Shown here: positions 25,017-35,523 of the stretch, piece by piece | Layout of the letters: each line of letters begins with the position of its first letter | How positions within the stretch are numbered: the stretch's first letter is position 1 | Source of the DNA: Propioniciclava sp. MC1595 | Lineage (GTDB): Bacteria; Actinomycetota; Actinomycetes; Propionibacteriales; Propionibacteriaceae | Direction: 5' to 3' | Length of the DNA stretch: 64,000 nucleotides | NCBI RefSeq assembly: GCF_017569205.1 | Contig: NZ_CP071870.1 | Span: forward strand, 558,001 to 622,000 | Notes under the pieces: model-generated | Seen by the model: only the letters and a program-made list of their open reading frames with translations | Databases searched by the model: none | Told to the model about the DNA's origin: nothing | Position numbers and translations under genes: made by a program

Positions 25017-25031
25017 CGGGGGCAGTCTACC

Positions 25032-25131
25032 GCCGACAGCCTGCCAAGTTCGCGCCCACAGCCTGCAGAGTTCGCGCCGACAGCCTGCCAAGTTCGCGCC
25101 GACAGCCCGCCAAGTTCGGGTCCAGAGCCCG
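25032..25131. repeat. 22-bp-period repeat array, locus 2 (five copies)
   Basis: Cores at 25032, 25054, 25076, 25098 and 25120 (GCCGACAGCCTG with one to three changes in later copies), each exactly 22 bp apart. The spacer here is nearly constant (CCAAGTTCGC). It lies in the 314-base gap between the divergent glycosyltransferase and IniB-like genes; the rest of that gap holds CCCCATGG-type short inverted repeats but no gene. Confidence 0.85.
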
Positions 25132-25330
25132 CCCCATGGGGCTGAGACCCGCCATGCCCCGGCCAGCCCCATGGTTCCCCCTGCCAACCCCCATCCCCCC
25201 GTCGGGGGATGCGGGGATCTTCCCCGCTGCCCCGGTCGCCGAGGCCGGGAGAAGCTTGTGCTGCACGCCACAACCGGCGTTCCAGTCGCGGAAGCCAACC
25301 GGCTCCACCCCCAGAGAGAGGGAACACCCC

Positions 25331-26395
25331 ATGTCGAAGAAGAACTCCGACAACGTCGTGGTCGAAGACGTCCTGTCCCACAACGACAACTCGGTGAACA
25401 CCGACGTCGACGCCAAGCTCGAGGTCGAGGACTCGTTCCAGGACAACTCCGACAACTCCACCAACGTCGGTATCGAGGACTCGTTCCAGGACAACTCCGA
25501 CAACTCGACCAACGTGGACACCGATGTCGACCTCGAGGTCGAGGACTCGTTCAACGACAACTCCGACAACTCGGACAACTCGGACAACAGCGACAACTCC
25601 GACAACTCGATCGACATCGACGACGCGTTCAAGGACCAGTCCGACAACTCCACCAACGTGGACGTCGACATCAACGACTCGTTCAACACCGACAACTCCA
25701 CCGACGACGACATCACCGACTCGTTCAAGCAGAGCTGGGACAACTCGGTCCGCAACCAGGACTCCTTCAACGTCACGAGCTCGTTCAACACCCAGACGCT
25801 GAACGACCACTCGACCACGATCGGCGTCCGCCAGTACAACAGCGGCTTCGGCGACTTCAACATCGGCGGCCTGCTCGGTGGCGGCGGGGCTGTCCCCGCG
25901 GCGGCCGGCAAGCACGGTGCGGCCGGCGGCTTCGACCTCGACGTCGACATCGACAACCGCTCCCTGCAGCTCGACCAGTCGGTCAGCCAGGCCATCTCCA
26001 CCGGTGACGGCAGCGGCGTGAGCCAGGCCTTCTCGCAGAACGCGACCGTGGCGTTCGGTGACGACTCGATCGCCGCCGGCCGCGACGTGAGCATCGACAA
26101 CTCGGTGTTCGAGGTGAAGCTGGGTGACGTGAACGTGGGCAACACCGCGATCGACACCCGCATCAACGACTCGTTCAACGACTTCTCGAAGAACTTCGAC
26201 GTCGAGCTCGACGTCGAGGTCGACGACTCCTTCAATGACCAGTCCGACCACACCAACGTCGACGTGGACGTCGAGGACTCGTTCACCAGCGAGATCGACA
26301 GCACCTTCAGCAAGAGCCTGGAGTGGGAGAACAGCGGCAACTTCTTCAGCCCCGGCGCCGCGACCTCCGGTGGCGAGGCGGACGTCGACTTCTGA
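25331..26395 (+). CDS. IniB-like acidic repeat protein 1
   Basis: A 354-residue, extremely acidic Asp/Asn/Ser-rich protein made of irregular repeats of the form V-E-D-S-F-N/Q-D-N-S-D-N-S (from residue ~30 to ~140 and again at the C-terminus), with a run of five D-N-S units. The middle has a Gly/Ala-rich bridge (GGLLGGGGAVPAAAG). A later segment, FGDDSIAAGRDV...GDVNVGN...RINDSFND, matches IniB-like protein 2 (VGDNSVAAG...GDVAVGN...VTDSFND), so the two are paralogues. It has no signal peptide and lacks the helical IniB N-terminal domain. Alternating hydrophobic/polar spacing suggests a beta-solenoid, perhaps cation-binding. AGAGAGGGAA precedes the ATG. It leads the GTPase operon. Confidence 0.75.
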   Translation: MSKKNSDNVVVEDVLSHNDNSVNTDVDAKLEVEDSFQDNSDNSTNVGIEDSFQDNSDNSTNVDTDVDLEVEDSFNDNSDNSDNSDNSDNSDNSIDIDDAFKDQSDNSTNVDVDINDSFNTDNSTDDDITDSFKQSWDNSVRNQDSFNVTSSFNTQTLNDHSTTIGVRQYNSGFGDFNIGGLLGGGGAVPAAAGKHGAAGGFDLDVDIDNRSLQLDQSVSQAISTGDGSGVSQAFSQNATVAFGDDSIAAGRDVSIDNSVFEVKLGDVNVGNTAIDTRINDSFNDFSKNFDVELDVEVDDSFNDQSDHTNVDVDVEDSFTSEIDSTFSKSLEWENSGNFFSPGAATSGGEADVDF

Positions 26396-26413
26396 CCGGC
26401 AATCGCACCCAGC

Positions 26414-26442
26414 GCCCGGCCTGCCCTTGCGGCAGGCCGGGC
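26414..26442 (+). terminator. Strong hairpin between the IniB-like and IniA-like genes
   Basis: GCCCGGCCTGCC (26414-26425) and GGCAGGCCGGGC (26431-26442) form a perfect 12-bp GC stem with a 5-base loop, 18 bases after the IniB-like stop. There is no U-tract. It probably lowers transcription into the GTPase genes or protects the 3' end of the iniB message. Confidence 0.8.
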
Positions 26443-26510
26443 CTTGGCGTTGCATGGACCTTGCACCCGGGCGCCACCCCCGCGGCCCGGTGCCACCGAA
26501 AGGGAACCCC

Positions 26511-28421
26511 GTGTCTGACCCCGCACCCACCCCCGTCCCGTCGGCCGACCCGGTGCCCCGGCGCGTGATCGTGCCGGACGCCGTCCGCCCCAGCGTGCCC
26601 CCCACGATCGCCGGCCTCGTCGAAGAGGTCGGACGCCTCGCGACGACGGCCGGCCGCACCGACCTCGTCGAACGCCTCCTCGCGACCCGTCGCCGTCTGG
26701 CCGACCCAGAGGTCCGCGTCGTGGTGGTGGGCGAGTTCAAGCAGGGCAAGAGCAAGCTGATCAACGCGCTCGTGAACGCGCCCGCGTGCCCGATCGACGA
26801 CGACGTGGCCACCAGCGTGCCCACCTCGGTCGGCTACGGGGACGAGCCCTCGGCGTTCGTGTTCCGGAAGACCGACCCGGCCGGGCCCGGGGACGAGGGC
26901 GTCGTGCGGGAGGAGATCCCGCTGGAGAACCTCGCCGACTACGTCTCCGAGGCGGGCAACCCGGGCAACGAGAAGCGGCTGGTCGGCGCCGAGGTGCTCG
27001 TGCCGCGCGAGATCCTGCGGGGCGGGCTGCGGCTGGTCGACTCCCCGGGCGTGGGCAGCCTCGACTCGGCAAGCGCGCTGTCGACGTTGTCGGCCCTGTC
27101 GTCGGCCCACGCCGTGCTGCTGGTCTCCGACGCCTCGCAGGAGTACACCGAGCCCGAGGTCCAGCTGCTGAAGCGGGCCATGCGCATCTCGCCGAACGTG
27201 GCGGCGGTGCTGGCCAAGACCGACCTGTACCCCGAGTGGCGCAGCATCGAGGCCATCGACCGCGGCCACCTGGAGGGGATCGGGGAACTGCCCCTGTTCC
27301 CCGTGTCCAGCGACCTCCGGCTGCTGGCCGCCGCCGAGCAGGACCGCGAGCTCAACACCGAGTCGGGCTTCCCCGCCCTCGTGGCCCACCTGCGCGCCGG
27401 CGTCCTGCAGCGGGCCGAGGCGATCGTGGCGCGCAGCGCCCTGCACGACGTCTCGTTCGTGGTCGAGCAGATGACCCTGTCGGCGCGCACCGAGCTGAGC
27501 GCGCTGCAGAACCCCGAGGGCACGCCGAGGCTGATCGCCGAGCTCGAGGACGCCAAGGCGAAGGCCGACGACTTCCGCAGCCGCTCCTCGCGGTGGCAGG
27601 TGGCGCTGGCCGACGGCATCGCCGACCTCATCGCCGACATGGAGCACGACCTGCGTGACCGGCTGCGGCGGGTCCAGCGCGAGGCGGAGCAGGCCATCGA
27701 CGAGGGCGACCCCGGCCCGATCTGGGACCAGCTCGCCGAGTGGGTCGACCAGCGCGTCGCCAGCGGGGTGTCGGAGACGTTCGTGTGGACCGACGAGCGC
27801 TCCAAGTGGCTCACCGAGGAGATCGCCGACATCTTCGCCCGCGAGCAGTTCGAGCTGCCCACCATCGCCGTCGGCAGCACCGAGGGGCTGCTCGACCCCG
27901 TCGACCGCCTCCCCGACTTCGACCCCGGCCACCTGAGCGCCGGCGAGAAGATCTACATCGGCGTGCGCGGCTCGTACGGCGGCGTCCTCATGGTCGGCCT
28001 GGCGACCGGCCTGATCGGCATGACGCTGATCAACCCGCTCTCGCTGCTGGCCGGCGTTCTGGTCGGCCGGCGCGCCTACCGCGAGGACATGACCAACCGC
28101 CTGACCCGGCGCCGCTTCGAGGCCAAGAACATCGTGCGTCGCTACATCGACGAGGTGACGTTCCAGGTGGCCAAGCAGCTCAAGGACCGCCTGCGCATCG
28201 TGCAGCGCACCAACCGCGACCACTTCGGCGCCATCGCCGACCAGACCCACCGGTCGCTGTCGGACGCCGTGCTCGCGGCCAAGCAGTCCGCCGGCACGTT
28301 CGCCGCCGAGCGCGACGGCCGGGCCAGGGAGCTCACCGAGCAGCTGCGCACCCTCGAGCTCGTGGCCCGCAAGGTGCCGCAGCTGCCGCCAGCCCCCGTC
28401 CCGCAGGCGGTGGGCCGGTGA
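26511..28421 (+). CDS. iniA: Dynamin-like GTPase, IniA type
   Basis: A 636-residue bacterial dynamin-like protein. GTPase motifs: G1 GEFKQGKS (74-81), the G2 Thr in DVATSVPT (about 101), G3 DSPG (177-180) and G4 AKTD (235-238). A long helical stalk follows, then a hydrophobic hairpin at about 489-519 (GGVLMVGLATGLIGMTLINP, then LSLLAGVLVG) that likely enters the membrane. IniA of mycobacteria has this order and has been shown to remodel membranes. The GTG at 26511 follows GAAAGGGAA. Its stop overlaps the IniC-like start (GTGA), so the two GTPases are translationally coupled and probably work together. Confidence 0.87.
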   Translation: MSDPAPTPVPSADPVPRRVIVPDAVRPSVPPTIAGLVEEVGRLATTAGRTDLVERLLATRRRLADPEVRVVVVGEFKQGKSKLINALVNAPACPIDDDVATSVPTSVGYGDEPSAFVFRKTDPAGPGDEGVVREEIPLENLADYVSEAGNPGNEKRLVGAEVLVPREILRGGLRLVDSPGVGSLDSASALSTLSALSSAHAVLLVSDASQEYTEPEVQLLKRAMRISPNVAAVLAKTDLYPEWRSIEAIDRGHLEGIGELPLFPVSSDLRLLAAAEQDRELNTESGFPALVAHLRAGVLQRAEAIVARSALHDVSFVVEQMTLSARTELSALQNPEGTPRLIAELEDAKAKADDFRSRSSRWQVALADGIADLIADMEHDLRDRLRRVQREAEQAIDEGDPGPIWDQLAEWVDQRVASGVSETFVWTDERSKWLTEEIADIFAREQFELPTIAVGSTEGLLDPVDRLPDFDPGHLSAGEKIYIGVRGSYGGVLMVGLATGLIGMTLINPLSLLAGVLVGRRAYREDMTNRLTRRRFEAKNIVRRYIDEVTFQVAKQLKDRLRIVQRTNRDHFGAIADQTHRSLSDAVLAAKQSAGTFAAERDGRARELTEQLRTLELVARKVPQLPPAPVPQAVGR

Positions 28422-29944
28422 CCTCCACCGCGCTCCGCGAGGCCGCCGAGCTCGTCGAGGCCGCCCGCCCGCTGCTCCGTGACGATCCGGACGCCCTCGC
28501 CGCCCTCGACGACCTCGACCGCCGCCTGGCCGAGCCGCTGCGCCTCGCCGTCGCGGGGATCGTCAAGGCCGGCAAGTCGACCCTGCTCAACGCCCTGCTG
28601 GGGGAGCGGATCGCCCCCACCGACGCCGGCGAGTGCACGCGCATCGTCACGTGGTACCGGTGGGCGGACACGCCGTCGATCACCGCGCACCTGGCCTCCG
28701 GGCCGGCCCGGAAGCTGCCCGTTCGCCGTGCCAACGGGCAGCTCGTCATCGGGCTGGGCGACCTCCCCGCCGCCGACGTCGACCGCATCGAGGTGGGCTG
28801 GCCCTCGGCCGTGCTGCGCTCGGTCACGCTCATCGACACCCCGGGCATCGAGTCGCTGTCCCACGACGTCTCCGCGCGGTCGGCGGCGTTCCTCGTCCCC
28901 GACGACGCGCCCTCGTCGGCCGACGCCATCGTCTACCTGATGCGCCACCTGCACCCCTCCGACCTCGGCTTCCTCGAGGCGTTCCGCGACACGGCCGCCG
29001 GGGCGGCCCGCACGGTCAACGCCATCGGCGTCCTGTCCCGGGCCGACGAGGTAGGCTCGGGTCGCATCGACTCGCTGTTGTCGGCGTCCCGGGTCGCCGC
29101 CCGCTACGAGCGCGAGGGCGGCCTGGACTCGCTCGTGCTCGGCGTCCTGCCCGTCGCCGGGCTGCTCGCCGAGGGTGCGCGCACCCTGCGCCAGTCCGAG
29201 TACGACGCCTTCCGCACCCTCGCCGCGCTCGGACGCCACGAGCGCGAGCGGCTGCTCGTCTCCTCCGACCGGTTCACGCGCCCCGACGCGCCCGTCGACC
29301 TCGACCAGGCCACCCGCCGTCGGCTGCTGGCCCGCTTCGGGATCTACGGCATCCGGCTGGCCACCTCGCTGGTGCGCGTCGGGGTGACCGACTCCTCCGA
29401 GCTCGCCGCCGGGCTGGTCGAGCAGAGCGGCCTGGTCGAGCTCGAGGGCTTCGTCGAACGCCAGTTCCGGGGCCGGGCCGACACCCTCAAGGTGCGTGCC
29501 GTCACCGACACGGTCGAGCGCCTGCTGGCCCGCGTCGACCCCGACCGGGCCACCGACGCCCTGGCCCGCCTCGAGAAGCTGCAGGCGTCGGCGCACGGGC
29601 TGCAGGAGCTCGGGCTGCTCTCGCGGGTGCGGCTGGGCACGCCCCCGCTGACCGGTCCGGACGCCGCGGCCGCGGCCCGCCTCGTGGGTGGAACCGGGAC
29701 CGGGGTGACCGAACGGCTGGGACTCCCCGCCGACGCGGCACCGGCCGACGTGGCTGCGGCGGCCGGTGCCGAACTGGAGCGGTGGCGCGCGAAGGCGGCG
29801 TCGCCGCTGGCCGACCGCCCCGTCCGGGACGCGTGCGGCGTGGTGGTGCGGAGCCTGGAGGCGCTGGCCTCAGAGGTCGCCGCCCCCACCGCCGATGAGC
29901 CCGCGGCGGATGTCGTGGCGGCGGGCGGTCCAGGTCAGGGCTGA
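28418..29944 (+). CDS. iniC: Dynamin-like GTPase, IniC type
   Basis: A 508-residue partner GTPase. Motifs are G1 GIVKAGKS (47-54), G2 CTRIVT (Thr74), G3 DTPG (140-143) and G4-like SRAD (207-210, Arg-Ala in place of the usual Lys-x). It lacks the hydrophobic membrane hairpin seen in the IniA-like protein, which suggests a peripheral or regulatory subunit of a heteromeric complex. The C-terminal 60 residues are Ala/Pro-rich. It overlaps the IniA-like gene by four bases and its 3' end overlaps the convergent membrane-protein gene by 75 bases, an unusually large overlap for real genes on both strands. Confidence 0.83.
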   Translation: MTSTALREAAELVEAARPLLRDDPDALAALDDLDRRLAEPLRLAVAGIVKAGKSTLLNALLGERIAPTDAGECTRIVTWYRWADTPSITAHLASGPARKLPVRRANGQLVIGLGDLPAADVDRIEVGWPSAVLRSVTLIDTPGIESLSHDVSARSAAFLVPDDAPSSADAIVYLMRHLHPSDLGFLEAFRDTAAGAARTVNAIGVLSRADEVGSGRIDSLLSASRVAARYEREGGLDSLVLGVLPVAGLLAEGARTLRQSEYDAFRTLAALGRHERERLLVSSDRFTRPDAPVDLDQATRRRLLARFGIYGIRLATSLVRVGVTDSSELAAGLVEQSGLVELEGFVERQFRGRADTLKVRAVTDTVERLLARVDPDRATDALARLEKLQASAHGLQELGLLSRVRLGTPPLTGPDAAAAARLVGGTGTGVTERLGLPADAAPADVAAAAGAELERWRAKAASPLADRPVRDACGVVVRSLEALASEVAAPTADEPAADVVAAGGPGQG

Positions 29945-30472
29945 GCGGAAGCTGCCGGCCAGGAGGGCCAGCAGCACCAGCCCGCACTGCAACAGCATGA
30001 GCCGGCGGACCTGCTCGCCCTGCTCGCCGTCGCCCACGACCTCGAGGGCCAGGGCGTACAGGCCGGCCTGGGCGATGAGGGTGGCGAGCTGCCACCACCG
30101 CGTGCCGGGCTTGCGGCTCATGAAGGCGACCAGTTGGGTGATCTGGGCCAGGAGGAGGGCCACCATGGTGCCGAACACCGCCCAGAAGACGATGTCGCCG
30201 GCGCTGGTGTAGATCTCGTCGGTCCGCGAGCCGTCCACGGTCCGGATCGCCTCGGTGATGACGGGCAGGTGGTCCTCCCGCACGATGAACAGGTAGACGA
30301 CCCCGATGCCGCCCGCGACGAAGCTGAGCACCCACAGCAGCTGGCTCAGCCGCACCGTGAACGGGGGCGGCTCCTTGACCAGGACGGGGGGCTCGTTGTC
30401 GCTGCGCAGGGTCGGACGGGCCGGTTGCCCGGCCCGCCCCCCACGCGTCGGGTCGTCGGTCTGGTCAGCCGT
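29870..30472 (-). CDS. Tetraspan membrane protein of the Ini cluster
   Basis: A 200-residue protein with a polar, Pro/Arg-rich N-terminal tail of about 40 residues, then four hydrophobic segments (about residues 43-64, 94-117, 128-145, 155-176). The C-terminus, HDIRRGLIGGGGGDL, ends inside the 3' end of the IniC-like gene. I do not recognise a family. I took the ATG at 30472; a TTG at 30490 is an alternative. It stands eight or more bases downstream of IniB-like gene 2 in the same direction, so it is probably the last gene of the leftward operon (Hsp70-like, LuxR, IniB 2, this gene) and may be a membrane partner of the GTPases. Confidence 0.65.
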   Translation of the reverse strand, partial: TADQTDDPTRGGRAGQPARPTLRSDNEPPVLVKEPPPFTVRLSQLLWVLSFVAGGIGVVYLFIVREDHLPVITEAIRTVDGSRTDEIYTSAGDIVFWAVFGTMVALLLAQITQLVAFMSRKPGTRWWQLATLIAQAGLYALALEVVGDGEQGEQVRRLMLLQCGLVLLALLAGSFRSALTWTARRHDIRRGLIGGGGGDL

Positions 30473-30498
30473 CATCGGTCGCGTGGCCAAGGCCCGCC

Positions 30499-31251
30499 TC
30501 AGGAGTTCTCGTAGTCGGTCTCGGGCAGCGGCTCGGCCTCGGCCTGGGGCTCGACCTCGACGTAGCTGTCGACCTCCACCTCGACGTAGCTGTCGACCTC
30601 GACCGCGGTGCTCTCGTTGAACGAGTCGTCCACGTCGGTCTCGATGGTGGTGGTGGTCGACTCGTCGTTGAAGGAGTCCTCGACCTCGGTCTCCACCTCG
30701 GCGACCACGTCGGTGGACGCGTCGTTGAACGAGTCGGTCACCGTCACGTCGGTGTCCTCGTTGCCCACGGCCACGTCGCCGACGGTGATGTCGGTGGTGG
30801 AGTTGTCGAGCAGGGCGTTGTCGCCGGCGGCCACGGAGTTGTCGCCGACGCCGATCACGGCCTCCTGGTCGAAGACCTGGGTGACGTCTCCCTCGGCCCA
30901 GATGTTCTGGTTGACCGACTGGTCGACGATCGTGGAGCGGTTGTCGATGTGGTAGTTGTTCGCGACGTTCTGGATGTGCTTGACGACCTCCGGGTCCTTC
31001 GGCACGGGCTTGGGGACGGGGACCGGCTTGGGCACGAAGATCGGTACCGGCTTCTCCACGACCTCGGGGCGGTCGACGACGACGGGCAGCACCTGCCGGA
31101 CGTCGGCGGCGCAGATGTCGGACAGCCCGGCGCGCTCGAGCGCCCGGTCGGGGTCGGCCTCGAACTCCGCGGCGGCGCGCGGATCCCGCAGCAGGCTCAG
31201 GATGAACTCGATCAGGGCATCGGCGATGGTCGCCAGGGGGGTGGTCGTCAT
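30499..31251 (-). CDS. IniB-like protein 2 with IniB N-terminal domain
   Basis: A 250-residue acidic protein. Residues 8-56 match the helical IniB N-terminal domain (LIEFILSLLRDPRAAAEFEA, then DPDRALERAGL). Then comes a rigid-looking Lys/Pro/Val linker (59-88), a stretch of about 120 residues of Asn/Asp/Val-rich repeats (NNYHIDNRS, VGDNSVAAGDN, VTDSFNDAST, VEDSFNDES), and an acidic tail with two copies of VEVDSYVE. It shares the DSFND repeat and the GDNSVAAG...GDVAVGN segment with IniB-like protein 1. No signal peptide. AGGAGA precedes the ATG. It is the N-terminal domain here that ties the cluster most clearly to mycobacterial iniBAC. Confidence 0.82.
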   Translation of the reverse strand: MTTTPLATIADALIEFILSLLRDPRAAAEFEADPDRALERAGLSDICAADVRQVLPVVVDRPEVVEKPVPIFVPKPVPVPKPVPKDPEVVKHIQNVANNYHIDNRSTIVDQSVNQNIWAEGDVTQVFDQEAVIGVGDNSVAAGDNALLDNSTTDITVGDVAVGNEDTDVTVTDSFNDASTDVVAEVETEVEDSFNDESTTTTIETDVDDSFNESTAVEVDSYVEVEVDSYVEVEPQAEAEPLPETDYENS

Positions 31252-31350
31252 GTCAGGTCTCCTGGGTCGGGGTGGTGGACGCCTGCCGCCACGCTAGGCA
31301 GCAGGGGGCTGGAGGGCATCGGGGATCGGCCCGATGGCGTGGGGGGTGCA

Positions 31351-33693
31351 CTAGGGAGAAGCATCGCGATCCTCCTCGACGAGGACCCGCAGCTTGGCCA
31401 TCAGGTCCGACCGGGAGGTGGCGCCCAGCCGGCGCCGGATGTGGGCGACGTGGTGCTCGACGGTCTTGGGCGAGATGAAGATCGACGCGCCGATCTCGTT
31501 GTAGGTCTTGCCCTGCAGCACGAGGACGGCGACGTCCCACTCGCGCTGGCTGAGGACGCCGGTCGCCTCGGGCGCCCCCGTCCGGGTGGACTCCTCGGCC
31601 CGGGGGGCCGACTCGCGGTGCAGCTCGCGGGCCACCGCGAGCAGGCGGGCCACGACGCGACGGTCCTCGGTCCGACGGGACCCGTGGCCGGCCAGGCGGG
31701 CCCCGTCCCAGGCCAGGCCGGCGGCGGCCAGGCTGCGGGCGGCCTCCTCGACGGCGTCGGCGTCCACCTTGCCGCCCAGCACGGACATCCAGACCCCACC
31801 GGCGTGCGCCATGACCCGGGCCAGCGGGTGGGCGGGTGCCGCGGCGACGAGGGCCCGGGCGTGCGGGGCGAGCCGCTCGGGCTCGTTGAGCAGGATGCCC
31901 TGCTGGACGCCGGCCCACCAGACGTGGGTGGCCCAGGCCGGGGGCGACCCCAGCTCCCGGAGGATCTCCTCCAGCCGCGCGGCCTGCGGGGCCAGGGTGG
32001 TCGCGTCGCCGACACGGGCCGCCGCCGTCAGCAGGGTGGTCAGGGGGAGTGCGGTGTAGAGGTCGACGTCGAGGTGGCGGACGCGCTCGAGGGAGTCCCG
32101 CCAGGCCGTCTCCAGGGCGGCGACCGTGTCGTGGCGCCGGACCAGCCCGACGCGCACCGCCTCGAGCAGGAGCGTGTCGCGGGGGGACACGGTGCCGGGG
32201 AGGCGTTCGGCCGCGGCGAGCGAGGCGCGGGCGTCCGCGGGGCGCTCGTTCTGCAGGGCGAGCCAGGCCTGCCACAGCACCAGCCGGCGGCGCGACCAGG
32301 CGCCCGCGGGGGTGCGTGCGACGGCCGCGTCCACGACCTGCTGGGCCGTCGTGATGTGTCCCGTGCCCAGGGCGACCGACGCCGTCACCACCGCCGGCAG
32401 CTCGGGCAGCGGCCGGTCGGGGTCGGCGGAGCCGTGGAGGTCGGCGGCCCGGACCAGGTCGGTCAGGGCGCCGGCCGGCGGGTCGGCCTCCAGGGAGGCG
32501 CGCAGCCCGCGATCGAGCAGCTCCAGGGCGATCTGCACCGTGCTCGGGGCACCGTCGGGGGCGGGCTGCGGCGCTGAGGGCACGCGGTCGGCATGGCCGG
32601 CGCCGACGTGCGCCAGGAGGGCCACCGTCGCGTCCGCGGCGTCGAGGGGGCGGGCGGCGCGGAACACGTCGCTCGCGGTGGACATCATGCTACGCGCCGC
32701 CCACACGGAGGCGACCAGCCCGGTCACCGTGCCGGGGGACGTCGGCTCGGTGTCCGGCGGCAGCGACTCCACCACGGACGCCGCGGCGTCCAGGTCGCCG
32801 GCGGCCCAGGCGTCGAGGGCCTGTCGGACGCGGAGGTCGGCGCCGTCGAGCCGGGACTCCAGCTCGTGGCGGCGGTGGGCGGGCAGGGACGCCCGGGCGG
32901 CCGCGCGGACCACGGGGACCGCCTCCCCGTTGCGGAGCAGCAGGCCCTCGGCGTGGCCGTGCTCGAGGATGTCCCCGGCCGTGGTGGCCGTCAGGAGCGG
33001 GAGCCGGGCCTCGGGGTGGTCGACGCAGAGCTGCTCGACGGCTCGCCGCAGCGGCTCGGGCACGGTGTCGAGGCGGTGGGTGACCTGCGCCTCCACCGCG
33101 CGGCGGAGCGCCGTGTGGCCCGGGTCGTGGGCGCAGTCGCGCTCATCGTGGGCGGCGAGCGCGTGGGTCACCAGCCACGTGACGCCGCCGGTCGCGTCGA
33201 GGATGTGGGTCAGGCACCCCTCGGCCAGCGTCGCGCCCGCGTCGTCGAGGTGGGCCAGCACGTCGGAGCGCGCCACCTGGCCGAGCACGACCGGCGGCGC
33301 CTCACGGTCGAGGCAGCGCGCGATGTCCAGCGCGAGGTCGGGTCGGGGCCAGGGGCGCATGGCGACCAGGAGCGCGGCCTCGGGGTCGGACGCCCGGGCC
33401 AGGACCGCGGCGAGGCGGTCGGCCTCGAGGAGGTGCAGGTCATCGACCAGGAGAACCTCGGCCGCCGGCACCCGCGCGGGGTCGGTGCCGCCGTCGAGGA
33501 AGCGCACGCGACGGCCGGCGTCCTGCAACAGGTGGGAGCAGCGGGTGAGCAGCGTCGTCTTCCCCGACCCGGCCGGGCCCACCGCGAAGCAGCGGGGCCG
33601 CTTGAGGGTGGACACGGAGGCCAGCGCCACGCGGGCCTGCCGGTTGAGCACGACGCCGGGCTCGAGGGTGGGGTGGAGGACGGGAGCGGCCAC
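31351..33693 (-). CDS. Large ATPase-LuxR transcriptional regulator
   Basis: A 780-residue regulator of the LAL/MalT architecture. The N-terminal P-loop is GPAGSGKTT (39-47), Walker B is VLLVDDLHLL (about 80-89), the centre is a long Ala/Leu-rich helical repeat region (TPR-like), and the C-terminal 60 residues are a LuxR helix-turn-helix (LSQREWDVAVLVLQGKTYNE, IGASIFISPKTVEHHVAHIR). The GTG start lies three bases after the Hsp70-like stop and the gene is followed by IniB-like gene 2, so it is likely the cluster activator. In this family, ligand and ATP binding cause oligomerisation and activation; the signal here is unknown. Confidence 0.85.
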   Translation of the reverse strand: MAAPVLHPTLEPGVVLNRQARVALASVSTLKRPRCFAVGPAGSGKTTLLTRCSHLLQDAGRRVRFLDGGTDPARVPAAEVLLVDDLHLLEADRLAAVLARASDPEAALLVAMRPWPRPDLALDIARCLDREAPPVVLGQVARSDVLAHLDDAGATLAEGCLTHILDATGGVTWLVTHALAAHDERDCAHDPGHTALRRAVEAQVTHRLDTVPEPLRRAVEQLCVDHPEARLPLLTATTAGDILEHGHAEGLLLRNGEAVPVVRAAARASLPAHRRHELESRLDGADLRVRQALDAWAAGDLDAAASVVESLPPDTEPTSPGTVTGLVASVWAARSMMSTASDVFRAARPLDAADATVALLAHVGAGHADRVPSAPQPAPDGAPSTVQIALELLDRGLRASLEADPPAGALTDLVRAADLHGSADPDRPLPELPAVVTASVALGTGHITTAQQVVDAAVARTPAGAWSRRRLVLWQAWLALQNERPADARASLAAAERLPGTVSPRDTLLLEAVRVGLVRRHDTVAALETAWRDSLERVRHLDVDLYTALPLTTLLTAAARVGDATTLAPQAARLEEILRELGSPPAWATHVWWAGVQQGILLNEPERLAPHARALVAAAPAHPLARVMAHAGGVWMSVLGGKVDADAVEEAARSLAAAGLAWDGARLAGHGSRRTEDRRVVARLLAVARELHRESAPRAEESTRTGAPEATGVLSQREWDVAVLVLQGKTYNEIGASIFISPKTVEHHVAHIRRRLGATSRSDLMAKLRVLVEEDRDASP

Positions 33694-33696
33694 GGG

Positions 33697-35523
33697 TCAG
33701 GCCACCTGCCCCGGGGTGGGCGTCGGGTCCTGGCTCGGGCCCGGCGAGGCCGTGCCGCCCGTCCCGGGGTCGGGCGTCCCCGTGGGGACGGTCGTCGGCG
33801 TCGGGTCAGGCTCCTGCGTCGGCGGGTCCTCCACCGGGATCTGCGGGGGCGAGGTCGGTGCCGGCGGGGGCGGGTCGACCGACGGCGGCGTGCTGGGTGG
33901 CGCCGACTGGCTCGGCGGCGCGGGCAGGCTCGGCGGGGTCGACGGGACGGGGGCCGGGTTCGACGGGGGAGCGCTGGGTGCCGCCGGCGGCTGCACGGGG
34001 ACGGGGTGGCTGCTCGGCGCCGACGTGGGGGCCGCGGTCGGGGTAGGGGTCTCGCTCCCGCTCGGCTCGGGGGACGCGGTGGCCTCGGCGTCCTCGCTCG
34101 CGCGCTCTTCGGCGGTGTCGGCGCGGCGGAGGGAGGCCGGCTCCGAGGCGTCCTCGGTCGCCGTCGGCAGGATCGCAGCGGGGGCGCCGGTCGGCGGGAC
34201 CGGGAGCCCGTCGAGGCCCGACCACACGCTGCCGAAGGCGGCCACGGGCTGGCGGTAGGGCCCGGCCTTCGGGGTGATGCCGGCGGTCGTCCGTGGGGCC
34301 AGCCCGTTGGCGACGAGCACCAGCCCGATCAGCACGGCCGCGCTGGCCGAGGCGATGGCTGCCCAACGCGCCCACCCCGGCAGGCGGCGGCCGGTCGCCG
34401 CGGCCTCCGCCACGAACCCGGACGCCTCGACGACCGGGCCGGCCGCGGCCGAAGCCCCCAGCGACGCCAGTGCGTGCAGGGCCGCCCCGCGGGCGATGGC
34501 GGAGGTCGGGTGGGCGCCGGGGGCGACGTGGCGGTCGTGCGACTCGGACAGGCGCTGCATCGCGCGGGGCAGGCGCGAGGAGCCGCCGACCATGACGACC
34601 CGCTCGACGGGGAGGCCGGAGGCGTCGATCGCGGCGTCGAGGGCAGCCACCGTCCGGTCGAGCGCCGGCTCGACCATGTGCTCGAACTCGGCGCGGGTCA
34701 GCCGGACCGACGCGTCCGCCCCCGGCAGGCGCAGCGGGATCGTCGCCTGCGCGTCGAGCGACAGCTCCTCCTTGGCGCCCACGCAGCCGCGGCGGAGGTC
34801 GCCCCACGCCGCGGGCGCCTCGGGGGTCTCGGGGGCGGCGCCGGGGGAGGCGGTCAGGACGTGCCGCAGCACGGCGTCGTCGAAGTCGACGCCACCGACC
34901 TCGACCTCGACCAGGGAGCCCGGGACCAGCGCGAAGCCGGTCGGCTCGGAGCGGCGCACCACGGAGCAGCGGGTGGCGCTGCCGCCGAGGTCGTAGACGG
35001 CCACGGCCTGCCCGGCGCGCACCGGGGACTCCGCGTCGTGCTCGGTGGCGGCGGCCACGGGTTCGGGCAGCAGGGTCGCGTCGGGGAGGCCGGCCGAGTC
35101 CAGCGCCGAGCGGACCCTGCCGACCCGGTGGGGACCCCAGGCCGCCGGGTGGGTGACCACCAGCGCGTCGGGGGCCGCGCCGCGCTGCTCGCGGACCGAG
35201 GCGGCCGCGGCGGCGGCGAGGTGGGCGAGGACCCGCTCGGGGGGCAGCGCGCGCCCGCCGACGAGGTGGGGGATGCCGGCACCCACGGCGTCCAGTCGGA
35301 GCCGGACGAGCCGCTCGGGGCGGTCGGCGCCCGCCCGTGCCGCGTCCTCACCGGTCAGCAGGTCGCCCGCGTCGTCGACGTAGACGAGCGAGGGCATGGC
35401 CTCGGCGGTCCCGCCCAAGGGGACGGTGGAGAGGGTGGCGCGGTCGCCCTCCCCGGGGCGGGCGATGGCGGCGGACACGCTGGTGGACCCGACGTCGATG
35501 CCGAGTGCGTAGCGTCCAGTCAT
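33697..35523 (-). CDS. Membrane-anchored Hsp70-like ATPase with Pro-rich extracellular tail
   Basis: A 608-residue protein. Residues 1-352 are an Hsp70/actin-fold ATPase domain: phosphate-1 GIDVGSTSVSAAI (8-20), LLPEPVAAA (151-159), phosphate-2 VYDLGGSATRC (176-186) and adenosine motif VGGSSRLPR (312-320). The usual peptide-binding domain is absent. Instead a membrane helix (about 386-408) leads to about 200 residues of Pro/Ser/Thr-rich sequence with no Cys, predicted outside the cell. This is not a chaperone of normal design; it may couple a cell-wall signal to an ATPase switch. The ATG at 35523 has AGGAG upstream. It heads the leftward operon with the LuxR and IniB-like 2 genes. Confidence 0.82.
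   Translation of the reverse strand: MTGRYALGIDVGSTSVSAAIARPGEGDRATLSTVPLGGTAEAMPSLVYVDDAGDLLTGEDAARAGADRPERLVRLRLDAVGAGIPHLVGGRALPPERVLAHLAAAAAASVREQRGAAPDALVVTHPAAWGPHRVGRVRSALDSAGLPDATLLPEPVAAATEHDAESPVRAGQAVAVYDLGGSATRCSVVRRSEPTGFALVPGSLVEVEVGGVDFDDAVLRHVLTASPGAAPETPEAPAAWGDLRRGCVGAKEELSLDAQATIPLRLPGADASVRLTRAEFEHMVEPALDRTVAALDAAIDASGLPVERVVMVGGSSRLPRAMQRLSESHDRHVAPGAHPTSAIARGAALHALASLGASAAAGPVVEASGFVAEAAATGRRLPGWARWAAIASASAAVLIGLVLVANGLAPRTTAGITPKAGPYRQPVAAFGSVWSGLDGLPVPPTGAPAAILPTATEDASEPASLRRADTAEERASEDAEATASPEPSGSETPTPTAAPTSAPSSHPVPVQPPAAPSAPPSNPAPVPSTPPSLPAPPSQSAPPSTPPSVDPPPPAPTSPPQIPVEDPPTQEPDPTPTTVPTGTPDPGTGGTASPGPSQDPTPTPGQVA

What the first reader, a model, noticed from the sequence alone, without database searches (positions are those of the whole stretch)
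25331..35523. Ini-type dynamin cluster with two IniB paralogues, a LuxR-ATPase and a membrane Hsp70-like ATPase
The sequence shows two dynamin-like GTPases in a coupled pair (26511-28421, 28418-29944), two paralogous acidic DSFND-repeat proteins on either side, a tetraspan protein, a 780-residue LuxR regulator and an Hsp70-like ATPase whose substrate-binding domain is replaced by a membrane helix and an exported Pro-rich tail. Known biology: mycobacterial iniBAC is induced by cell-wall drugs, and IniA is a membrane-remodelling dynamin. Inference: the Hsp70-like protein senses the envelope, the LuxR protein activates the genes, the IniB proteins form an acidic scaffold, and the GTPases repair or reshape membrane. 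The combination with an Hsp70-like sensor and a duplicated scaffold goes beyond iniBAC.
Basis: partly seen in the sequence, partly recalled or inferred. Interest (0 to 1): 0.85.

Follow-up and report, generated by a model that had tools for sequence, protein, structure and literature searches.

The report
IniBAC-type dynamin cluster with membrane Hsp70
An unnamed actinobacterium carries a non-mycobacterial form of the envelope-stress gene set iniBAC, and in most relatives examined that have it a membrane-anchored Hsp70-like protein is encoded beside it, a partner that the open papers searched mention only in passing.

Summary
The seven genes are real and at the stated places. Much of the combination is known: the "LuxR-ATPase" is a homologue of the iniBAC regulator IniR, the second IniB corresponds to iniB*, and a dnaK-like gene beside iniR was noted for M. 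smegmatis (PMC5760070). Added here: breadth and order. At 45 IniA-type loci from two overlapping genome samples, an Hsp70-like gene without DnaK linker lies within 6 kb in 38, IniR within 10 kb in 33, IniR never without it, it in five without IniR on that stretch. The protein is an Hsp70 nucleotide-binding domain, one membrane helix and a Pro/Ser/Thr tail (82 of 83); catalytic residues changed at least four times by parsimony and are degenerate in the window. CCCCTA box arrays precede iniB in mycobacteria-like, Arthrobacter-group and other-class loci; window-type loci show a single CCCCGATG variant. In one genus 14 of 15 three-box matches lie between hsp70-like and iniB frames. Best reading: hsp70-iniR senses; IniR switches on iniB-iniA-iniC and iniB2-tetraspan. 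New variant of a known kind; no expression or binding data.

The parts
25186..25231 (+). C-run block upstream of iniB1; contains TTCCCCGCTGCC at 25220-25231 (two mismatches to ATCCCCGATGCC), about 110 bp before the start codon
   Evidence: weak: the weight matrix prefers another site (25145)
25331..26395 (+). iniB1: acidic DSFND/DNS-repeat protein, 354 aa, without the IniB N-terminal domain
26511..28421 (+). iniA: dynamin-like GTPase, 636 aa
   Evidence: Pfam Dynamin_N; 6j72 IniA E 1.1e-125
28418..29944 (+). iniC-like second dynamin-like GTPase, 508 aa, overlapping iniA by 4 bases
29870..30490 (-). tetraspan membrane protein without Pfam or NCBIfam match up to E 1; a homologue is present in 52 of 58 named loci with full flanks
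30499..31251 (-). iniB2: IniB N-terminal domain (about 31072-31218) plus core and DSFND repeats, 250 aa; counterpart of mycobacterial iniB*
   Evidence: NF038175 78.6 bits over its cut-off; Rv0340_fam 53.6 bits, under its cut-off of 100; alignment
31315..31326 (-). candidate IniR box ATCCCCGATGCC between iniR and iniB2; the only exact copy in the 3.43-Mb genome
   Evidence: CCCCGATGCC before iniB2 in 7 of 9 window-type loci
31351..33693 (-). IniR homologue: N-terminal ATPase with Walker A GPAGSGKT, C-terminal LuxR/GerE HTH, 780 aa
33697..35523 (-). Hsp70-like membrane protein, 608 aa: Hsp70 nucleotide-binding domain without substrate-binding domain, catalytic residues degenerate; three bases between its stop and the iniR start
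34309..34365 (-). membrane helix of the Hsp70-like protein (about residues 387-405)
33700..34308 (-). Pro/Ser/Thr-rich, presumably extracytoplasmic tail (203 aa, 51% P+S+T)

Best explanation
The locus is a non-mycobacterial IniR-iniBAC envelope-stress module built from two parts. Part one, hsp70-iniR (probably one operon: three bases between stop and start), makes the sensing and switching proteins: a membrane protein with a cytoplasmic Hsp70 nucleotide-binding domain and an outward tail, and IniR. Part two is the output: iniB1-iniA-iniC and iniB2-tetraspan. When the envelope is damaged, the tail (cell wall) and/or the sugar-binding part of IniR (trehalose in mycobacteria) change state; the Hsp70-like domain, in its nucleotide-bound shape, stops holding IniR, much as MalK holds MalT (analogy, recalled); IniR then assembles on CCCCTA/CCCCGATG boxes before the iniB genes, and the two dynamins, recruited by the acidic IniB proteins, remodel or seal the plasma membrane. 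Shown here: genes, homology, conserved linkage, predicted membrane anatomy, conserved boxes. From literature on mycobacterial homologues: IniR activates iniBAC; IniA cuts membranes. Inferred: that the boxes are IniR sites (about 0.7), that the Hsp70-like protein controls IniR (about 0.4), that IniB recruits the dynamins (about 0.35).
For: IniA match to the solved structure; IniR and IniB domain matches; co-occurrence in 57-58 of 58 named loci with full flanks and 38 of 45 census loci; hsp70 frame directly upstream of the iniR frame in 65 of 69 named loci that hold both; membrane helix in 82 of 83 and more Lys+Arg before than after it in 81 of 83; confident domain plus single helix in the model; two CCCCTA boxes within 40 bp before iniB in 7 of 7 mycobacteria-like, 22 of 38 Arthrobacter-group and 4 of 5 other-class loci, shuffles 0.0-0.1; three-box pattern once per genome in 15 of 78 genomes of one genus against 4 matches of the reversed pattern, 14 of the 15 flanked by divergent hsp70-like and IniB2-profile frames; no box pair before hsp70 in 0 of 24, 0 of 34 and 0 of 6 loci where hsp70-iniR is a separate unit. 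Literature, passages only: IniR ChIP peak before iniBAC and trehalose induction (PMC5760070); GTP-dependent membrane fission by IniA (PMC6715688).
Against: Five census loci have the Hsp70-like gene and no IniR on the stretch, so it is not only an IniR partner. In the passages seen, the 2017 paper names the dnaK-like gene for M. smegmatis only, while M. tuberculosis and M. marinum respond through IniR, which suggests that IniR can do without it. The window's own box evidence is thin: one exact box before iniB2, a two-mismatch box before iniB1 that is not even the matrix's best site there. CCCCTA pairs are absent from 10 of 10 window-type and 29 of 30 Microbacterium-group iniB-operon loci. A matrix trained on 18 iniB2 boxes, scanned before the iniB operon, gives hits against shuffle expectation and coding control of: window-type 6 of 10 (1.8; 1), Microbacterium group 17 of 30 (4.8; 8), Phycicoccus 0 of 1 (0.2; 0), Arthrobacter group 22 of 38 (8.0; 14), mycobacteria-like 6 of 7 (1.8; 1), other class 2 of 5 (0.6; 1), so the coding control weakens the Arthrobacter and Microbacterium figures. 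The box words were chosen after looking at the sequences. IniR is below the curated cut-off. No expression, binding or interaction data.
Confidence: 0.55

Rival explanations
1. The Hsp70-like protein works directly on the membrane machine, not on the regulator: its nucleotide-bound head binds IniB or the dynamins and recruits or dismantles their assembly at damaged cell wall, as Hsc70 dismantles coats (analogy, recalled). IniR is an add-on regulator.
For: Hsp70-like gene within 6 kb of IniA in 38 of 45 loci, IniR within 10 kb in 33, IniR without it in none; Hsp70-like without IniR on the stretch in L105, L107, L111, L227, L228 (L105 has an IniR on another contig) and, outside the 45, next to a weaker dynamin pair and with a WD40-like tail in L112; in the other-class loci L092, L093, L095 and L097 hsp70 is not beside iniR but divergent from iniB.
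Against: In 65 of 69 named loci with both, hsp70 directly precedes iniR, not the dynamins; no substrate-binding domain; at least four changes between intact and degenerate catalytic residues on the IniA tree, which an ATP-driven disassembly engine should not tolerate.
Confidence: 0.3
2. The Hsp70-like protein is an actin-like (MreB/FtsA-type) membrane scaffold that marks wall-synthesis sites and only positions the dynamins.
For: MreB_Mbl is the second Pfam match (24.4 bits here, under its cut-off of 27; 49.6 bits in L155); membrane anchor and presumably outward tail.
Against: HSP70 matches are far stronger (109.7 and 163.2 bits) and the best solved relatives listed are DnaK chains; polymerisation not testable here.
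Confidence: 0.1
3. The neighbourhood is conserved by shared ancestry or joint transfer without functional coupling of the Hsp70-like gene.
For: The system is patchy: 34 of 296 genomes of the class, and neither of the two other members of the family in the sample, as expected for a block that is gained or lost whole.
Against: Gene order is reshuffled among groups while the linkage persists, also at loci without IniR.
Confidence: 0.05

Closest known systems
Mycobacterial iniR-iniB*-iniBAC locus (PMC5760070, passages seen)
   Same: IniA and IniC dynamins, IniB-type proteins including a short one, IniR with ATPase and LuxR HTH beside the operon; in M. smegmatis also a dnaK-like gene beside iniR
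   Different: Here IniB1 lacks the IniB N-terminal domain, iniB2 lies on the other strand with a tetraspan gene, hsp70-iniR is a separate unit without box pairs of its own, and the regulator scores 299.5 bits against a cut-off of 750
Loci in Microbacterium, Arthrobacter/Pseudarthrobacter, Phycicoccus and MAGs (public genomes; no paper on them seen in the listings of searches)
   Same: Window-type order in Microbacterium and in MAGs labelled Propionibacterium or Actinomycetales; homologues of the same components
   Different: Arthrobacter group: mostly one IniB, all genes but the tetraspan colinear; in 30 of 35 loci no Walker A was found in IniR
DnaK/HscA Hsp70 chaperones
   Same: Nucleotide-binding domain by sequence
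   Different: No substrate-binding domain; membrane helix and P/S/T tail instead; degenerate catalytic residues in this copy
MalT (comparison drawn in PMC5760070)
   Same: ATPase, ligand-binding part, LuxR-type HTH; arrays of short boxes before the target (for MalT recalled)
   Different: Ligand, box sequence and partner protein; likeness of the boxes to MalT boxes is recalled, not tested

Membership tests
IniR-iniBAC system | IniA-type dynamin | tested here: met
   6j72 E 1.1e-125 over residues 33-621
IniR-iniBAC system | second dynamin (IniC) coupled to IniA | tested here: met
   4-base overlap; the window protein alone finds the second dynamin of seven mycobacteria-like loci (L099-L103, L105, L108) at 346-387 bits
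IniR-iniBAC system | IniB with N-terminal domain NF038175 | tested here: met
   met by IniB2 (78.6 bits), not met by IniB1
IniR-iniBAC system | IniR regulator at the curated equivalog cut-off (NF038181, 750 bits) | tested here: not met
   299.5 bits; 6 of 396 genomes exceed the cut-off. Filed as an IniR homologue, not as the equivalog
IniR-iniBAC system | regulator, short IniB and dynamins next to each other | tested here: met
   present, rearranged
IniR-iniBAC system | induction by cell-wall inhibitors; IniR binding to the iniB promoter | not testable with these tools
   only candidate boxes
Hsp70 chaperone | nucleotide-binding domain | tested here: met
   PF00012 109.7 bits; confident model to about residue 360
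Hsp70 chaperone | substrate-binding domain | tested here: not met
   match ends at residue 352; the rest is one helix and a disordered tail
Hsp70 chaperone | catalytic Lys70, Glu171, Thr199, Asp201 (E. coli numbering, recalled) | tested here: not met
   Leu, Glu, Ala, Arg in the window; intact in 62 of 88 labelled loci
Dynamin superfamily | Dynamin_N GTPase domain | tested here: met
   both proteins over the Pfam cut-off

The most novel reading that the evidence does not exclude
A membrane-anchored Hsp70 nucleotide-binding domain is a core, ancestral nucleotide switch of a bacterial dynamin machine across the phylum, older and more constant than the IniR regulator, and it has been turned into a non-catalytic pseudo-Hsp70 several times (mycobacteria-like genomes, the window lineage, Microbacterium lines); the drug-induced iniBAC response is a trimmed offshoot of that machine.
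Probability: 0.3. Interest if true: 0.75.

Novelty: new variant of a known kind. Interest (0 to 1): 0.55.

Why it matters
The iniBAC promoter is used as a reporter of cell-wall damage in many drug papers (titles and abstracts in the listing), yet how damage reaches IniR, what IniB does and which sequence IniR binds are open in the passages I saw. The wide set of loci puts forward a component that most of them share, a membrane Hsp70-like protein with a presumably outward tail, gives a concrete box sequence to test, and shows the system in genera such as Arthrobacter and Microbacterium that make no mycolic acids (recalled), so it need not be mycolate-specific. Such genera become models for it.

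Tried and rejected
Rejected: (1) A reciprocal rule 'either IniR or the Hsp70-like protein keeps its ATPase'. The raw table over 85 loci (Walker A absent and catalytic set intact / both / Walker A present and set degenerate / neither) was 33 / 26 / 24 / 2. On inspection L119 and L095 do have a Walker A, L104 has Arg for its Lys, L097 is masked, and L091 seems to have lost both; what remains is mainly the Arthrobacter group, so no rule is claimed. (2) A hsp70-iniR fusion in L179: the joint reads like a frame slip in the tail. (3) The 22-bp repeat at 25031-25133 as the IniR site: not seen in the stretches of relatives printed; the scan reports one repeat per locus, mostly coding, and is weak evidence of absence. 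(4) The IniB N-terminal domain as a LigA-like leader: E 0.7 only.

One search compared with a wrong frame of the DnaK stretch and was redone. Four of the 15 matched genomes (G038, G361, G074, G392) had served to read the spacing; 11 had not. Box counts rest on guessed start codons. A fold comparison of the model and a second structure (IniB2) could not be queued.

Filters and dropped rows: canonical DnaK genes were left out by hand (L090, L105) and by a linker pattern; searches had no such filter. One search dropped 9 of 92 Hsp70-like frames (truncated, masked or without the motif; L112 among them). One search's main counts use 58 of 80 named loci; one search kept 80 of 139 relatives, so the named set leans to near kin of the window's IniA. 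Gene calls use profiles built from the same loci, on stop-to-stop frames. In one search the Walker A test used the best-scoring frame; L174 is a split gene.
Full report
What is there. The window lies at G000:C1:558001-622000 of a single-contig 3.43-Mb genome. On the plus strand iniB1 (25331-26395), iniA (26511-28421) and an iniC-like gene (28418-29944) follow each other; on the minus strand hsp70-like (35523-33697), iniR (33693-31351), iniB2 (31251-30499) and a tetraspan gene (30490-29870) follow each other, with 3 bases between hsp70 stop and iniR start and 99 between iniR and iniB2. The nearest named relatives by IniA are MAGs labelled Propionibacterium, Propionibacteriaceae, Actinomycetales and the like (70-86% identity) and Microbacterium (about 64-70%); the organism itself is unnamed.

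What the proteins are. IniA: Pfam Dynamin_N and solved IniA 6j72 at E 1.1e-125. The second GTPase: Dynamin_N; best solved match the bacterial dynamin 2j68. IniB2: NCBIfam IniB N-terminal domain, 78.6 bits; IniB1 has no such match but is its paralogue by sequence. The 780-aa regulator: GerE HTH, Walker A, and 299.5 bits to the IniR model, under the curated 750. The Hsp70-like protein: HSP70 match over the nucleotide-binding domain only; AlphaFold2 with 30 aligned sequences gives a confident domain up to about residue 360, one helix 383-407 and a disordered tail, mean pLDDT 73.8, pTM 0.63. Among 83 full-length frames (9 of 92 dropped) 82 have a hydrophobic peak of at least 1.6 after the domain, 81 have more Lys+Arg before than after it (2 equal), and the tail has a median of 217 residues with 46% Pro+Ser+Thr. 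So the head is most likely cytoplasmic and the tail outside (inference from the positive-inside rule).

Co-occurrence. Named set: 80 best of 139 relatives found with IniA. Of the 58 with at least 7.5 kb on both sides of iniA: iniC 58, an IniB 58, iniR 57, Hsp70-like 57, tetraspan 52; over all 80, cut contigs included: 80, 79, 76, 69, 73. The single full-flank locus without iniR and hsp70 is L150. Of 69 named loci holding both, the hsp70 frame lies directly upstream of the iniR frame in 65; three have a split gene (L119, L128, L174) and one is the L179 read-through. Unnamed samples: in 396 genomes of the phylum IniA is matched at E <= 1e-20 in 42 genomes and at E <= 1e-90 in 22 places of 19 genomes; in 296 genomes of the class at E <= 1e-60 in 34 genomes, which adds 23 places. 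Of these 45 places iniC lies within 2 kb in 43, an Hsp70-like gene without DnaK linker within 6 kb in 38, IniR within 10 kb in 33; IniR without Hsp70-like: none; Hsp70-like without IniR on the stretch: five (L105, whose genome has IniR on another contig; L107, L111, L227, L228). The seven places without it: L090 (contig break; Hsp70-like and IniR of that genome are on L091), L109 and L110 (no iniC within 2 kb either), L229, L231, L232, L233 (weaker IniA). The 20 genomes checked hold three to ten HSP70 matches each, canonical DnaK and pieces of one gene counted, so chance neighbourhood would be a few per cent at most (my estimate).

Gene order differs between groups while the linkage stays: Microbacterium and MAGs as in the window; Arthrobacter/Pseudarthrobacter hsp70-iniR-iniB-iniA-iniC in line with the tetraspan gene facing them; mycobacteria-like genomes mostly with hsp70-iniR divergent from iniB*-iniB-iniA-iniC; several other-class genomes with hsp70 divergent from iniB-iniA-iniC and iniR at the far end.

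Catalytic residues. Aligned to the genome's own canonical DnaK, the positions of Lys70, Glu171, Thr199 and Asp201 (E. coli numbering, recalled) read K, E, T, D in all 10 other-class copies, all 34 Arthrobacter copies and 16 of 25 Microbacterium copies; in none of 11 f5 copies (some with gaps at the first positions) and none of 6 window-type MAG copies, two of which differ only by Arg at Lys70; and in the window they read L, E, A, R. On an IniA tree (quick method, several long branches; 88 labelled rows: 62 intact, 24 degenerate, 2 with only Lys to Arg) the fewest changes are 4 with the strict label and 6 with the other two labels. Gly10 (88 of 90, 2 gaps) and Asp194 (90 of 90) are kept. Loss of the catalytic set with retention of the fold and anchor suggests that in these lines nucleotide binding or shape matters more than turnover (inference). 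Positions in the most divergent copies may be misaligned.

IniR. In 30 of 35 Arthrobacter-group loci with both genes no Walker A was found in IniR, and a Pseudarthrobacter IniR (L164) matches the IniR model only from position 186 on (381.9 bits), so there the regulator lacks its ATPase domain. This bears on the published suggestion that IniR senses ATP through that domain (PMC6104191, passages).

Boxes. Upstream of iniB1 in several of the window's relatives a C-run block recurs. Counted against shuffles: CCCCTA within 230 bp upstream of the iniB operon in 7 of 7 mycobacteria-like (0.7 expected), 35 of 38 Arthrobacter-group (5.8), 4 of 5 other-class (0.5), 11 of 30 Microbacterium-group (2.5), 3 of 10 window-type (0.8), 0 of 1 Phycicoccus. 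Two CCCCTA within 40 bp on one strand: 7 of 7, 22 of 38, 4 of 5, 1 of 30, 0 of 10, 0 of 1. CCCCGATGCC: iniB2 upstream 7 of 9 window-type (0.0), 11 of 30 Microbacterium-group (0.1), 0 of 1 Phycicoccus; iniB-operon upstream 1 of 10, 10 of 30, 6 of 38 Arthrobacter-group, 0 of 7 and 0 of 5. Of the seven mycobacteria-like loci four have three boxes 18 and 15 bp apart, one 17 and 15, two have two boxes. A search with the 18/15 pattern alone (one mismatch allowed) in 78 genomes of that genus gave 15 matches in 15 genomes, 13 of them exact, against 4 for the reversed pattern; 14 are flanked by divergent Hsp70-like and IniB2-profile frames and the fifteenth (L199) lies by two Hsp70-like frames with no IniB match; 4 of the 15 genomes had served to read the spacing. 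Before hsp70, box pairs are absent in 0 of 6 window-type, 0 of 24 Microbacterium-group, 0 of 34 Arthrobacter-group and 0 of 1 Phycicoccus loci, but present in 7 of 8 mycobacteria-like and 5 of 10 other-class loci, where the stretch is shared with or near iniB. So the boxes go with iniB promoters. A weight matrix trained on iniB2 boxes gives a moderate excess before the iniB operon that the coding control partly matches (figures under evidence against). In the window the exact ATCCCCGATGCC occurs once in the whole genome, 24 bases beyond the iniR stop and before iniB2; in the window itself matches with up to two mismatches number 22 against 9.87 expected, most of them elsewhere. That these are IniR sites is inference; a ChIP peak of IniR before iniBAC is published, without a motif in the passages I saw. 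A repressor, HpoR, binds a different palindrome there (PMC13413693, passages).

Mechanism. See the best explanation. The strongest rival, that the Hsp70-like protein works on the dynamin machine itself, draws on its presence without IniR; the sensor reading draws on the hsp70-iniR adjacency. Both may hold.

Comparison with what is known. PMC5760070 (passages) already reports the iniR - iniB* - iniBAC synteny in mycobacteria and the dnaK-like gene beside iniR in M. smegmatis. Searches for this combination elsewhere, judged by their listings: 'iniB, Hsp70, dynamin' (four papers on other subjects), 'Hsp70, IniB, Arthrobacter' (none), 'dnaK-like gene, iniR, iniB' (only the 2017 paper holds the phrase), 'Hsp70-like ... 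dynamin ... actinobacteria' (two papers on other subjects), 'IniR, iniBAC, Microbacterium' (no listed paper holds Microbacterium). The library is limited to open licences. So: homologous to and working like the iniBAC-IniR system, a new variant by the conserved membrane Hsp70-like protein, the tetraspan protein, the split IniB pair and the predicted boxes.

Noticed in passing
window 25031-25133: 4.7 direct copies of a 22-bp unit between a glycosyltransferase-like frame and iniB1; two more copies with one mismatch lie at G000:C1:849786-849825. Function unknown.
   Followed up: partly
L112 11798-13864 (G204): A weaker IniA/IniC pair has next to it an Hsp70 head followed by WD40-like repeats (my reading of the printed sequence) instead of a membrane helix.
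   Followed up: no
L164 6535-8628 and other Arthrobacter-group loci: IniR homologues without Walker A or N-terminal ATPase domain (30 of 35 by motif; one by profile); a natural test of the idea that IniR senses ATP.
   Followed up: partly
L101, L102, L103, L221, L222, L224, L225: Mycobacteria-like loci with a second Hsp70-like gene beside iniC or iniR.
   Followed up: no
L199: A three-box array (one mismatch) by two Hsp70-like frames with no IniB match in the 3 kb.
   Followed up: no
L109 and L110 (G235, G050): IniA paralogue without iniC within 2 kb; in G235 two weakly matching Hsp70-like genes lie 8.7 kb and more away.
   Followed up: partly
G000 and its order: Patchy distribution: no IniA match at E <= 1e-60 in either of two other family members and in 18 of the 19 same-order genomes listed (capped list).
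   Followed up: no
L195 5571-7304 (-) (G000:C1 about 1689570-1691303): Another Hsp70-like gene in the same genome, with intact DLGGGTFD, of a different type.
   Followed up: no
IniB N-terminal domain, profile positions 30-60 of alignment A2: Weak likeness to LigA-like RiPP precursor domains (E 0.7); not significant.
   Followed up: no
L179 3844-7986: Hsp70-like and IniR in one open frame in an Arthrobacter draft; the joint looks like a frame slip.
   Followed up: partly
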